DNA from: Acidobacteriota bacterium
Lineage (GTDB): Bacteria > Actinomycetota > AC-67
Length of the DNA stretch: 57,743 bases
Reading direction: 5' to 3'
NCBI GenBank assembly: GCA_016208485.1
Contig: JACQXY010000043.1
Coordinates: 1 to 57,743 of the forward strand
Shown here: positions 12,996 through 16,548 of the stretch, one piece after another
Layout: every line of letters starts with the position of its first letter
How positions within the stretch are numbered: position 1 is the stretch's first letter
Position numbers and translations under genes: made by a program
Notes under the pieces: model-generated
Told to the model about the DNA's origin: nothing
Databases searched by the model: none
What the model saw: the letters and a program-made list of their open reading frames with translations, nothing else

Positions 12996-13007
12996 CGCGA
13001 CGGCGGT

Positions 13008-13080
13008 GGGCCCGTGGGGTAATGGACAGCCCAGGACCCTGACGAAAGTCCAGGAGGCAGTTCGAATCCGTCCGGGCCCA
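13008..13080 (+). tRNA. tRNA-like gene 1, loop CTGACGA (GAC, Val-like), irregular
   Basis: The acceptor stem GGGCCCG/CGGGCCC is perfect, with discriminator A73; no CCA is encoded. The D arm GGGT-AATGGACA-GCCC and T loop TTCGAAT are canonical. The anticodon arm is irregular: in standard register the 5-bp stem fails (GGACC against AAGTC), and only an enlarged loop restores GGAC/GTCC pairing; the T stem has one A-C mismatch. Standard numbering puts GAC at 34-36, which with A73 would suggest valine. Bases 25-40 of this RNA are perfectly complementary to 13186-13201 downstream. It may be a decoy or specialised tRNA rather than a translating one. Confidence 0.65.
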
Positions 13081-13149
13081 CCCCTTCTTGAGCAAGGTGG
13101 GACCCTCGCCGGGGCGGCCAACAGGGATATCCGCTCCGCCATCTGGCAC

Positions 13150-13304: not shown

Positions 13305-13316
13305 CGCGGCGGCGGT

Positions 13317-13389
13317 GGGCCCGTGGTGTAACGGAAAGCACAGGGCTCCGACTAAGCCCCGGGAGACGGTTCGAATCCGTCCGGGCCCA
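13317..13389 (+). tRNA. tRNA-like gene 2, anticodon GAC (Val-like) with C33
   Basis: Folds as a complete cloverleaf: acceptor GGGCCCG/CGGGCCC, D arm GTGT-AACGGAAA-GCAC, anticodon stem GGGCT/AGCCC, loop CCGACTA, 5-base variable loop, T arm GACGG-TTCGAAT-CCGTC, A73, no encoded CCA. GAC at 34-36 and A73 would fit valine, but position 33 is C where U is nearly invariant. The anticodon arm differs from copy 1 while the acceptor and T-arm 3' halves are identical. Bases 13346-13357 are the exact reverse complement of 13494-13505 in the same unit. Confidence 0.72.
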
Positions 13390-13458
13390 CCCCTTCTCTT
13401 GAAGAGGGGACCACCGCCGGGGCGGCCAACGGAAGATAACCGCCCTGCCACCCGGCAC

Positions 13459-14378: not shown

Positions 14379-14996
14379 TTACACGGTTCGCCGGGCGTGA
14401 AACAACTGGTGGCCACCATTGCCCTCCGGCACAAACGTATCGCGGATGATCGAACATCCCGCGGCCTCCAGCCACGACCTATATGTCGCCGAGTCCGCAT
14501 GACTCCAATACATGGTCGCGTCCGGGACCCCAAGCCAGTTCTCCTCCGTCCCTGTCCAGGCATGCGCCCCGAGCGTCGCCATGAAGCTGCCGCCCACCTT
14601 GAGCCAGCCGGCGATCCGCTCAAGAAGAGAACTCTGCTCCTCCACCGGAACGTGGATGATGGCGTAGAAGGACACAACGGCATCGAACGATGCCGCAGGG
14701 AAACGCACCATGCTCATGTCCTCGCATATGAACTCAGCATCCGGAACCAGCAGACGCGCACGCTCAATTTGCACTGGCGAAAGGTCCACGCCGGTCACGC
14801 GCGCGCGCGATGAGAGCAACTTGCTGGTCGGCACGCCGCATCCACAACCCAGATCCAAGATTCAAGGTGCGGAGCCGAGCGCGGAACAGAGTTCATCGAT
14901 CCAGTCGCCATAGGCGTGGTCGCCGTCCCCGTCGTCGGAGCGGTAGGCGAGCGAGACCCGATCGAATCCATCGCGCACAACCTGCTTAGCGTTCAT
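14379..14996 (-). pseudogene. Class I SAM-dependent methyltransferase interrupted by one in-frame UGA
   Basis: From the ATG at 14996 the frame gives MNAKQVVRDGFDRVSLAYRS and continues to LCSALGSAP, then a TGA (14862-14864), then at once ILDLGCGCGVPTSKLL, the SAM-binding motif I. The rest is intact: VTGVDLSPVQIERAR, FDAVVSFYAIIHVP, GWLKVGGSFMATLG and a proper C-terminus (HQLFHARR). Nothing is missing and no frame changes, so a single codon separates it from a full 205-residue enzyme. It may be a nonsense mutation, a sequencing error, or recoding; no selenocysteine-type context is evident. It lies in the integron-like cassette block. Substrate unknown. Confidence 0.8.
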
Positions 14997-15009
14997 CGTG
15001 CATCCGTAT

Positions 15010-15068
15010 GGCGACGGTCCGCCGATGAGCTGCCGACATCGCCGGCCCGCTCCATCGGCATGTTGGCG
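15010..15068 (-). other. attC-like site 2 (59 bases, degenerate)
   Basis: Minus strand: CGCCAACATGCCGATGGAGC at the left, then an imperfect central palindrome, then GCTCATCGGCGG and a degenerate right end GTCGCC. It has the same length as attC 1 and shares AACA-GCCGATG-AGCGG with it. The GCCGATG/CATCGGC pairing matches the L boxes of integron recombination sites. It follows the antitoxin gene and precedes the methyltransferase, as expected for a cassette boundary. Confidence 0.6.
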
Positions 15069-15080
15069 GGCACTCTTCCC

Positions 15081-15299
15081 TCAGCCTCGAACCGGCGTAA
15101 GTCGGTAGACACGGATCGCCATCTGCGACGCCCGGTCGATGTCGCCTGCCCGCAGCGCGTCTCGCACGTCGTCTAGCTTGTACGCGTCCTCCAAGGACAG
15201 GTACGGCGTCCAAGCTCCCTCGGCCTCCACGAGCTCAACATCCACCTCGGCGACAAATTCTCCTTCGCGCACTAGTCGTCTAGTCGACCTGCGGCTCAT
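15081..15299 (-). CDS. Antitoxin-like partner of the DUF4258 protein
   Basis: Small acidic protein of 72 residues: MSRRSTRRLVREGEFVAEVD, then a segment with YLSLEDAYKLDDVRDAL and a basic end VYRLTPVRG. I recognise this as the short protein commonly encoded next to DUF4258 toxins. Its ATG overlaps the stop of the upstream DUF4258 gene as ATGA, so both are co-translated. It sits inside a cassette bounded by two attC-like sites. A role as antitoxin is inference from the arrangement. Confidence 0.7.
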   Translation of the reverse strand: MSRRSTRRLVREGEFVAEVDVELVEAEGAWTPYLSLEDAYKLDDVRDALRAGDIDRASQMAIRVYRLTPVRG

Positions 15300-15643
15300 G
15301 TCCGCCTCCTTTGCCACGTCTCATCCCACCTCTCCGGGTCAGGCCTGTACCCAGTTATCAGGACAGCCGGTGAATCCTGACTCGCCGGGATGCCCCAGAC
15401 TACATGGATCGGCCGACCGTCTCGATCTGGCTCCAGAACCAGCACGCACGACCCCCTCGGATAGTCTGGGTAATCCTCGACAACAACGGCCGCTGCCAAC
15501 CCTTCGACAGCGTCACGCACGCGGATCGTGTCCGCGGCAAGCTCCTCGTAGCCGTGAAGCGATACGCGCACCTCACCCCGCGCGACCAGCGCTTGCACCT
15601 CTTCCAGGGTCTTGCTCACGGTCGTTCCAACCTCTGTCAACAA
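15296..15643 (-). CDS. DUF4258 domain protein, putative RelE-fold toxin
   Basis: About 115 residues. The DUF4258 pattern is visible: VSLHGYEELAADTIRVRDAVEGL, VVEDYPDYPRGSCVLVLEP, GRPIHVVWGI and VLITGYRPDPERWDETWQRR. Members of this fold are often ribosome-independent RNases in type II toxin-antitoxin pairs. Possible starts are the TTG at 15643 or 15640 (AGGA just upstream) or a GTG at 15619; I give the longest. It comes first in the pair, toxin before antitoxin, which is common for this family. Confidence 0.8.
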   Translation of the reverse strand: MLTEVGTTVSKTLEEVQALVARGEVRVSLHGYEELAADTIRVRDAVEGLAAAVVVEDYPDYPRGSCVLVLEPDRDGRPIHVVWGIPASQDSPAVLITGYRPDPERWDETWQRRRT

Positions 15644-15657
15644 CTTCGTCCTGTCCC

Positions 15658-15716
15658 GCTAACGCCTTGCCGATCGGCGGCGGCCGAAGGCCGGCCGCTA
15701 CATCGGCTTGTTAGAC
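15658..15716 (-). other. attC site 1 (59-base element)
   Basis: On the minus strand it begins GTCTAAC (R''), continues AAGCCGATGTA (L''), a GC-rich palindrome around TTCG (GGCCGGCC-TTCG-GGCCG-like), CGATCGGCAAGG (L'), and ends CGTTAGC (R'). GCCGAT pairs with ATCGGC, and the outer TAAC/GTTA boxes are those used by integron integrases. It starts 6 bases after the nuclease stop codon, the normal place for a cassette recombination site. No integrase gene is in the window. Confidence 0.8.
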
Positions 15717-15722
15717 CTCTGC

Positions 15723-16469
15723 TCACGACCACATCTCGGTTTCGATGAGGCGCATGTACTTGTTGGCGTAGAACATGTCCGGCTCCTGTTTTCTAGCGCG
15801 GACGCGAATGTCGAACTGCGGATTCTCAGGCGAGGACACGGCGAACAGAATCAGTCCGATGCCAAACACCTGACTTAGCGAGTCAAGGCGAGCAATCTCG
15901 TCTTGGGGCGACTCCTTCGGCACCACGAGATACGACTTGTGACTGAAAAGGCAGTACGCGCAAGCCTGACCAAACGCTGTCACAAGCTGCGAGACGTCGG
16001 TCTTGATTTCGGCAGAGACGATCTCAGTAGGCGCCTGCAGGATGTCGCTCTTCTTTGACTCGCGCTTCCCGACAACGTCAGGAGTTCCCCACTTATCTCG
16101 GAATCGGTTGCCACCGAGCGGGATGGCCTTCGTGCAGTCCTCCAGGTCGTTCACAAGCCAATCGGCGAAGGAGGAGTAGAAGTCCTCTTCCTTCGTCTTC
16201 TTCGCAGGCTTCGGAACGAGGGCGGCCTTCAGTTGGTCGGTGTCCTTCTCTCGAAACTCGACGAGGCGAAACAGGCCGCGCGACGGCTTGTACACCTTGT
16301 CCGGGAGACGGGTGGCGAGATCCCACACCGTAGCGTGGATCGTGTTCTTCTTCAGGGATGCATCGGTCGCCTGGACCTGGGTAACGAGGTCCGTGTAGCG
16401 GATGCCATCCGGATGCTTCTTCAGCTGCTCAAGGGCAATGGTGGTTATCTTCTCGCCGATCGTTGCCAT
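15723..16469 (-). CDS. HTH plus PD-(D/E)XK-type nuclease-like protein (cassette gene)
   Basis: About 248 residues. The N-terminal ~80 residues look like a HARE/winged-helix domain: MATIGEKITTIALEQLKKH, TDLVTQVQATDASLKKNTIH, YKPSRGLFRLVEF. The C-terminal part has the order of a restriction-nuclease fold: WGTPDVVGKR (Asp), then TEIVSAEIKTD (Glu-x-Lys), then QLVTAFGQACAYCLFSHKSYLVVP. Composition is clearly less GC-rich and uses more AT-ending codons than the host genes, a sign of transfer. An attC follows the stop codon. A defence or DNA-processing role is plausible but unproven; the start is supported by an AGAGAG purine stretch. Confidence 0.7.
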   Translation of the reverse strand: MATIGEKITTIALEQLKKHPDGIRYTDLVTQVQATDASLKKNTIHATVWDLATRLPDKVYKPSRGLFRLVEFREKDTDQLKAALVPKPAKKTKEEDFYSSFADWLVNDLEDCTKAIPLGGNRFRDKWGTPDVVGKRESKKSDILQAPTEIVSAEIKTDVSQLVTAFGQACAYCLFSHKSYLVVPKESPQDEIARLDSLSQVFGIGLILFAVSSPENPQFDIRVRARKQEPDMFYANKYMRLIETEMWS

Positions 16470-16548
16470 CGTGTGATCTCTCTTCGCGATTTCGGGCTTC
16501 GCGTGGTGCATTCGGCCCGCCCGCCGGGATTGGCCCGCGCTGCTGGTC

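What the first reader, a model, noticed from the sequence alone, without database searches (positions are those of the whole stretch)
15723..16469. Cassette-borne HTH plus PD-(D/E)XK protein, candidate defence nuclease
The N-terminal HARE/winged-helix-like part with a C-terminal D...ExK core is a layout shared with modification-dependent restriction systems. It is carried by an attC cassette next to a toxin pair and has its own TATACT promoter.
Basis: inference. Interest (0 to 1): 0.5.

Follow-up and report, generated by a model that had tools for sequence, protein, structure and literature searches.

The report
Integron cassette nuclease, likely restriction enzyme
A gene that appears to travel between bacteria and archaea on small mobile cassettes encodes what looks like a DNA-cutting enzyme with its own DNA-gripping domain, probably used to destroy foreign DNA, but no cutting or defence has yet been tested.

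Summary
The gene is on the minus strand (ATG 16469, stop 15725-15723; 248 aa). Its C-terminal domain models as a PD-(D/E)XK nuclease (pLDDT 93); joint best structural matches are the restriction enzyme PaqCI (Z 12.5, 146 residues) and 3dnx. D131 and E154 are invariant in 75 of 75 aligned rows, K156 in 74. The N-terminal domain is a winged helix closer to Bacillus Rok than to HARE. An attC site follows the stop. The claimed TATACT promoter is not supported.

The protein reaches no cut-off in Pfam, NCBIfam or PADLOC. 112 relatives were found in bacteria and archaea; the family is patchy (4 of 296 genomes of the phylum sample, own included). Fifteen of 80 genome loci carry DNA methyltransferase or restriction genes of several types within three genes, against 0 of 24 control stretches. 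The nuclease domain is distantly related to HrgA, the "restriction-replacing" protein of Helicobacter (profile E 2e-8; controls 0.04 or worse).

Best explanation: a stand-alone, cassette-borne restriction nuclease, plausibly modification-dependent (type IV-like). Fold and catalytic residues are shown by computation; cleavage, target mark and phage defence are inferred.

The parts
15723..16469 (-). wH-PD-(D/E)XK protein, 248 aa, intact (P0001); stop codon at 15725-15723
   Evidence: single match in own genome
16263..16463 (-). N-terminal winged-helix domain, residues about 3-69, Rok-like
   Evidence: hmmsearch of family profile vs PDB: Rok 5zuz E 0.0014; WH_Rok in 34 of 75 rows; VIA Z 8.0
15726..16208 (-). 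C-terminal PD-(D/E)XK nuclease domain, residues 88-248; D131, E154, K156, with E94, Q168, Y172
   Evidence: model pLDDT 93.1; PaqCI 8em1 Z 12.5, 3dnx Z 12.4; conservation
15659..15716 (-). attC site directly 3' of the gene (R'' GTCTAAC ... GCGTTAG)
15296..15643 (-). next cassette: DUF4258 protein, toxin-like
   Evidence: Pfam DUF4258 E 1.6e-13
15081..15317 (-). 78-aa partner of the DUF4258 protein, antitoxin-like by position only
   Evidence: no family above cut-off
15000..15066 (-). possible decayed attC after the DUF4258 pair (stem kept, R' core lost)
   Evidence: sequence, fold; judged by eye
14379..14996 (-). third cassette gene: SAM-dependent methyltransferase (named by eye) interrupted by an in-frame stop
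16489..16501 (.). probable 5' boundary of the nuclease cassette
   Evidence: 92% DNA identity (425 of 460) to L051 begins at 16489, which is 12 nt downstream of the first base of that copy's GTTAGAC core

Best explanation
The gene encodes a small stand-alone DNA endonuclease. A winged helix of the Rok kind holds DNA, and a metal-dependent PD-(D/E)XK domain (D131, E154, K156, helped by E94 and Q168) cuts it, probably as a dimer. It is a distant relative of the HrgA proteins. It spreads as an integron cassette and is often found near restriction-modification genes of various types, so it most likely restricts incoming DNA. Because it is not tied to one kind of methyltransferase, and neither of the two methylase families searched (N6_Mtase, N6_N4_Mtase) occurs on its contig here, a type IV-like (modification-dependent) mode is the likeliest form of restriction. 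Shown by computation: fold, catalytic residues, cassette site, spread, neighbours. Inferred: cleavage, dimer, target mark, protection from phage.
For: PD-(D/E)XK fold. PaqCI's catalytic D54/E73/K75 (passage) have the same D...E-x-K order. Catalytic columns conserved in 74-75 of 75 rows. Rok-like wH with Rok's DNA-contact positions largely basic: R24 72/75, K61 66/75, R64 63/75 plus K 11/75 (contacts from PMC6212790, passages). dN/dS 0.125 against the nearest copy over 146 codons. Gene GC 58% in a 72% GC window; 1 of 60 and 4 of 296 genomes carry it, own included, which points to horizontal gain. attC-like site within 60 nt of the stop in 6 of 80 relatives vs 10 of 588 neighbouring genes, Fisher p 0.007. 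RM genes within three genes in 15 of 80 genome loci vs 0 of 24 control stretches, p 0.02. Four cases directly beside a methyltransferase or Res gene on the same strand with gaps of 1, 5, 23 and 29 bp (L036, L031, L025, L073). HrgA profile match E 2.2e-8; in Shewanella, HrgA lies 17 bp before HsdR.
Against: No activity data. No PADLOC match for P0001. 65 of 80 genome loci show no RM gene within three genes, though contig ends cut many of them short. The control is small, from one phylum, and itself matched 17 PADLOC models of other kinds. Three relatives carry broken frames (L024, L077, L079), so the gene is dispensable, or these drafts hold errors. Across relatives, gene GC follows flank GC (r 0.87), a sign of long residence in many hosts rather than constant movement. 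Hosts range from 31 to 70% GC, so AT-rich targeting alone could not tell self from foreign. No molecular function of HrgA is given in the passages read; [quoted passage not shown]
Confidence: 0.55

Rival explanations
1. It is the endonuclease of an ordinary type II-like system, sequence-specific and blocked by methylation supplied in trans by a host methyltransferase.
For: In L025 and L055 an N6/N4 DNA methylase is the gene directly upstream, 23 and 60 bp away. The own genome has N6_Mtase and N6_N4_Mtase hits on other contigs.
Against: Neighbouring systems are of many kinds (type I, IIG/Eco57I, MmeI-like, III, DUF1156), so there is no constant partner. In 65 of 80 loci none was seen within three genes. 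A lone cassette copy should harm hosts without the right methylase (inference).
Confidence: 0.2
2. It is a DNA repair or junction nuclease (NucS/EndoMS-like or MmcB-like) rather than a defence enzyme.
For: Structural matches include 2vld NucS (Z 8.5) and, on the full-length model, EndoMS 5gke (Z 8.7); 3dnx, of unknown function (MmcB-like is my recall), scores as high as PaqCI.
Against: Patchy distribution (4 of 296), cassette carriage and RM neighbours are unlike a repair gene. PaqCI, a restriction enzyme, is joint best.
Confidence: 0.12
3. It is a cassette- or island-stabilising (addiction-like) nuclease, or an accessory effector of neighbouring systems, not restriction in its own right.
For: It sits beside a DUF4258 toxin-like pair; TA cassettes that can stabilise arrays are common in integrons (PMC9668308, passage). 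HrgA lies 17 bp before HsdR in Shewanella.
Against: No immunity gene is paired with it in the cassette: the attC begins 6 bp after its stop.
Confidence: 0.13

Closest known systems
HrgA proteins (COG2958, name recalled) on plasmids of Helicobacter, Alteromonas, Shewanella and others
   Same: C-terminal nuclease domain matches by profile over residues 90-221, E 2.2e-8, with E94, W127, P130-D131, E154-x-K156, Q168 and the GIG turn in register. RM neighbourhood in one case.
   Different: 305-324 aa vs 248. HrgA in L145 carries a HARE-HTH, ours does not. Profile similarity is confined to the nuclease half.
PaqCI, type IIS restriction endonuclease (8em1)
   Same: Same PD-(D/E)XK fold over 146 residues, Z 12.5, and D...E-x-K order.
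   Different: PaqCI has the nuclease at the N-terminus and a separate target-recognition domain; sequence identity 11%; not among the profile hits at E<=10.
wH-fusion type IV endonucleases (DpnI, FcyTI, HhiV4I; PMC11037411)
   Same: A winged helix joined to a nuclease domain in one small protein.
   Different: In the PD-(D/E)XK-wH enzymes the nuclease comes first. P0001's only Pfam row at E<=10 is DUF7669, E 0.06, so no DpnI-type domain was hit. 6mA reading is untested here.
Rok winged helix, Bacillus xenogeneic silencer (5zuz, 5zux)
   Same: wH fold and the kP.RG wing; family profile E 0.0014; several basic contact positions kept.
   Different: Rok is a silencer without nuclease; its N154 aligns with T43 here, so base contacts need not be the same.

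Membership tests
PD-(D/E)XK nuclease superfamily | alpha-beta-beta-beta-alpha-beta core | tested here: met
   C-terminal model pLDDT 93.1, H7-22 E27-30 E45-49 E62-68 H72-85 E91-97; PaqCI Z 12.5
PD-(D/E)XK nuclease superfamily | Asp at start of beta-2 and E-x-K in beta-3, conserved | tested here: met
   D131 75/75, E154 75/75, K156 74/75. Caveat: one search peptide, DKWGTPDV, contains D131; E154/K156 were in none.
PD-(D/E)XK nuclease superfamily | metal-dependent DNA cleavage | not testable with these tools
   needs purified protein
HrgA family | profile similarity of the nuclease domain | tested here: met
   hhalign 95.3%, E 2.2e-8; reversed E 0.11, 20 column shuffles E 0.043 or worse
HrgA family | HARE-HTH N-terminus | tested here: not met
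   P0001 no HARE-HTH hit at E<=10; 2 of 75 rows at best 0.064. Of 4 HrgA scanned (of 5 aligned) only L145 had it, so the feature is not universal there either. Filed as distant relative, not member.
Type IV (modification-dependent) restriction | cuts only modified DNA | not testable with these tools
   biochemistry needed
Type IV (modification-dependent) restriction | no cognate methyltransferase gene needed beside it | tested here: inconclusive
   No N6_Mtase or N6_N4_Mtase hit on contig C22, which holds the window; 5mC methylases not searched; some relatives do have a methylase next door
Integron gene cassette | attC directly 3' of the gene | tested here: met
   15659-15716
Integron gene cassette | defined 5' recombination boundary | tested here: inconclusive
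   inferred from L051 at 16489-16501; no GTTRRRY core seen in the window there
Integron gene cassette | integron integrase in the genome | tested here: met
   C64:16420-17346, TIGR02249 416.7 bits over cut-off 265; other contig than the array
Rok-type winged helix | WH_Rok profile match and minor-groove contact residues | tested here: inconclusive
   34 of 75 rows match at E<=1, P0001 itself does not at E<=10; R24, K61, R64 kept, N154 position is T43

The most novel reading that the evidence does not exclude
A so far unnamed family of one-gene restriction nucleases, carried between archaea and bacteria by integron cassettes, in which a Rok-like minor-groove winged helix rather than a HARE, SRA or DpnI-type domain reads a mark or shape of foreign DNA and triggers a PD-(D/E)XK cut. 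That would make integrons carriers of ready-to-use type IV immunity across domains, and HrgA its long-unexplained cousin.
Probability: 0.25. Interest if true: 0.68.

Novelty: new variant of a known kind. Interest (0 to 1): 0.46.

Why it matters
The gene is intact and its family widespread and strongly conserved (112 loci found), yet P0001 reaches no model's cut-off in Pfam, NCBIfam or PADLOC. If it restricts DNA, it adds a single-gene defence module that moves by cassette, and it suggests a function for HrgA, which was reported to replace a restriction gene in H. pylori and for which the passages read give no molecular activity. Both can be tested by simple plasmid and phage assays in E. coli K-12.

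Tried and rejected
Rejected: HARE-HTH as the N-terminal domain. A private sigma-70 promoter. AT-rich DNA as the only mark of foreign DNA, since hosts span 31-70% GC. Constant pairing with one RM type. Membership in HrgA proper (HARE feature not met).

Weak rows not built on: DUF7669 (P0001 E 0.06; 9 of 75 rows, best 0.005). AbiEi models in PADLOC (two models, 5 and 4 of 75 rows, best 4.6e-5). sce7726 family in NCBIfam (17 of 75, best 0.0046). The ahpD row of P0001 (E 0.046), taken as chance.

Led nowhere: phmmer of P0001 against the PDB (best 0.68, chance). tblastn in 50,697 phage records (no match at 1e-5) and in plasmids (1 of 72,556 records, Novosphingobium, 37%). Foldseek with the C-terminal model (no match at E<=0.001), so the fold claim rests on VIA-align Z, model quality and motif. 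Viral contigs gave 5 loci. The strict two-core cassette test was not significant (2 of 78 vs 2 of 538, p 0.08; upstream core alone 6 of 78 vs 14 of 538, p 0.03). DpnI, Mrr and McrBC are not among the 50 VIA rows; this excludes nothing. Paper searches listed mostly papers unrelated to this protein; one search was useless.

Limits: 74 of 80 kept relatives entered the alignment. L024, L077 and L079 (broken frames), L051 (3' part lost), L070 and L072 (no start found) were dropped. Gene calls in relatives come from a simple longest-ORF script. PADLOC/Pfam neighbour scans used 134 of 327 neighbours and 122 of 125 control proteins. Controls are 24 of 40 requested stretches; 9 did not exist and 7 were shorter than 10 kb. 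Control rows in Pfam are a capped list (25 of 155 families), so the zero rests on PADLOC (complete list of 17 families, no RM model) and on BLAST. The BLAST seeds came from the test loci, so that zero is biased; the PADLOC zero is independent. Integrase presence was tested in 20 genomes chosen by me, 12 for cassette signs; 5 of 20 were over the cut-off, one of them with a partial match; 0 of 14 named controls were.

Full report
What is there. The ORF at 15723-16469 is real but on the minus strand: ATG at 16469, stop at 15725-15723, 248 aa. It is the only match in its 2.66 Mb draft genome. P0001 reaches no curated cut-off in Pfam, NCBIfam or PADLOC.

Relatives. A back-translated search of one genome per species found 112 relatives, of which 80 are kept (47-69% identity in the best segment over most of the length, apart from L051, a 93% match over residues 1-149 only). 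They come from Planctomycetota, Verrucomicrobia, Nitrospira, Bacteroidetes, Proteobacteria, several archaea and others. One of the six peptides searched contains D131 and another contains Q168, so invariance at those two spots is partly built in; E154 and K156 were in none. In the alignment of P0001 with 74 of the 80 loci, D131 and E154 are invariant, K156 holds in 74 of 75, and E94, Q168 and Y172 in 75 of 75.

Fold. The full model has pLDDT 84.6, pTM 0.61. The C-terminal domain alone has pLDDT 93.1, pTM 0.88. VIA-align puts PaqCI first (Z 12.5, 146 residues, rmsd 3.6), tied with 3dnx (Z 12.4), then NucS 2vld (8.5) and XisH (7.4-7.6); FokI, HindIII, AspBHI, BamHI and MspJI follow at 5.0-6.5. 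The tool warns that Z under 8 may mean only a common arrangement. Foldseek alone gave no E<=0.001 for this domain. D131 is at the start of the second strand, and E154-x-K156 is in and just after the third, as the PD-(D/E)XK plan demands. PaqCI's catalytic residues are D54, E73, K75 (PMC10201449, passages). I could not superpose coordinates, so the residue equivalence is by topology.

DNA-binding part. The family profile finds Rok in the PDB (E 0.0014). WH_Rok matches 34 of 75 rows at E<=1, best 2.1e-6, HARE-HTH only 2; P0001 itself hits neither. Rok binds the minor groove through N154, T156 and R174, with lysines 116, 136, 164 and 171 (PMC6212790, passages). Reading the alignment, K136, K171 and R174 fall on R24, K61 and R64, which are R in 72, K in 66 and R in 63 (K in 11) of 75 rows; N154 falls on T43. 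This suggests DNA binding, not the same sequence preference.

Cassette. The attC at 15659-15716 begins 6 bp after the stop. The genome holds an integron integrase without stops on contig 64 (416.7 bits), with an attC-like site and a cassette gene after it. The window array is therefore a detached or fragment array of up to three cassettes: this gene; a DUF4258 pair; a methyltransferase with an in-frame stop. The last two attC sites look decayed (by eye). A 92%-identical DNA stretch in a Planctomycetota contig (L051) begins at window 16489, 12 nt downstream of the first base of that copy's GTTAGAC core. The cassette's 5' end is thus near 16489-16501, and the TATACT at 16554-16549 lies outside; no sigma-70 site was found. 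dN/dS to L051 is 0.125 over 146 codons. Gene GC is 58% against 72% for the window.

Spread. 1 of 60 nearest genomes and 4 of 296 of the phylum sample carry the family (the own genome is counted in both). attC-like sites directly after the gene occur in 6 of 80 relatives, among them two archaea (L019, L021), against 10 of 588 neighbouring genes (p 0.007); some of those ten look like true cassettes. A looser two-sided test was not significant. Of 20 host genomes chosen by me, 5 have an integron integrase over cut-off. Against constant movement: across relatives gene GC follows flank GC (r 0.87).

Neighbours. Within three genes, 15 of 80 genome loci have DNA methyltransferase or restriction genes: N6/N4 methylases (L025, L055), type III Mod/Res (L073; Res in L030), Eco57I/IIG (L029, L031, L033, L036, L056), MmeI-like (L063), type I (L040, L061, L062), DUF1156 (L012, L026). 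L012, L025, L026, L029, L030, L055, L063 and L073 were confirmed by individual Pfam scans; L012 only just passes the DUF1156 cut-off (24.4 vs 24 bits), and the N6_N4 rows of L012 and L026 stay below theirs. The other seven rest on BLAST to confirmed ones (L061 weakly, E 1e-5). Of 5 viral loci, L087 has type I genes and L083 a methylase by BLAST. The 24 control stretches gave 0, though PADLOC models of other kinds did match there. The effect is moderate (p 0.02), and the control is small and from one phylum. No single partner is constant, which fits a solo defence gene that lands in defence islands better than one half of a fixed RM pair.

HrgA. From memory I suspected HrgA. Five of them, aligned, match the family by hhalign over residues 90-221 with E 2.2e-8; the reversed profile gave 0.11 and 20 shuffles 0.043-0.92. 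One HrgA lies 17 bp before HsdR. Passages read: in MboI-sensitive H. pylori strains hpyIIIR was absent and hrgA present, with the pathogenic mechanism unclear (PMC4687069); hrgA was reported to replace a restriction gene in H. [quoted passage not shown] HARE-HTH-REase fusions have been proposed to read modified bases (PMC10853773, passages), and wH-nuclease fusions that sense 6mA have been demonstrated (PMC11037411, abstract, introduction and passages), there with reversed order for the PD-(D/E)XK type. The present protein has a Rok-like wH instead.

Mechanism. I hold a restriction nuclease most likely (0.55), type IV-like as its likeliest form. What is shown is fold, motif, conservation, cassette and neighbourhood. 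What is inferred is cutting, dimerisation, target and protection. That integron cassettes carry restriction genes is known: among archaeal cassette proteins with a predicted function, 8.3% are phage-resistance proteins by DNA methylation or restriction (PMC9668308, passage). Two papers on integron phage defence (Kieffer; Darracq) were seen only in a reference list. In the listings and passages seen here I found no description of this family; it has no name to search by and the library lacks most subscription journals, so this is weak.

Noticed in passing
L093:9560-10252 (own genome, contig 64), attC-like site at L093:10263-10322: The cassette gene next to the genome's integron integrase encodes a second PD-(D/E)XK-like protein (P0002) with C-terminal CxxC pairs; hhalign to this family's nuclease domain probability 81%, E 1.2e-5.
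   Followed up: partly
window 14379-14996 (-): Cassette-borne SAM-dependent methyltransferase gene interrupted by an in-frame stop.
   Followed up: partly
window 13007-13083 and 13316-13392: Two tRNA-like genes in repeats 84% identical: the second is called tRNA-Val (gac), the first has an odd four-base anticodon and may be a decayed copy.
   Followed up: no
L147:3638-4573: HrgA gene 17 bp upstream of a type I restriction subunit R on a Shewanella plasmid, which may hint at an accessory role of HrgA.
   Followed up: no
L021:7078-9567 and L019:3510-5846: NB-ARC/TPR protein and a possible nSTAND protein (below cut-off) near the family gene in two archaeal loci, possible further defence genes.
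   Followed up: no
own genome contig 52, 35624-36997 (L143, L151): N6_N4 methylase and Mrr_cat hits lie side by side, each in a 629-codon open frame, presumably the same one: a candidate methylase-nuclease fusion.
   Followed up: no
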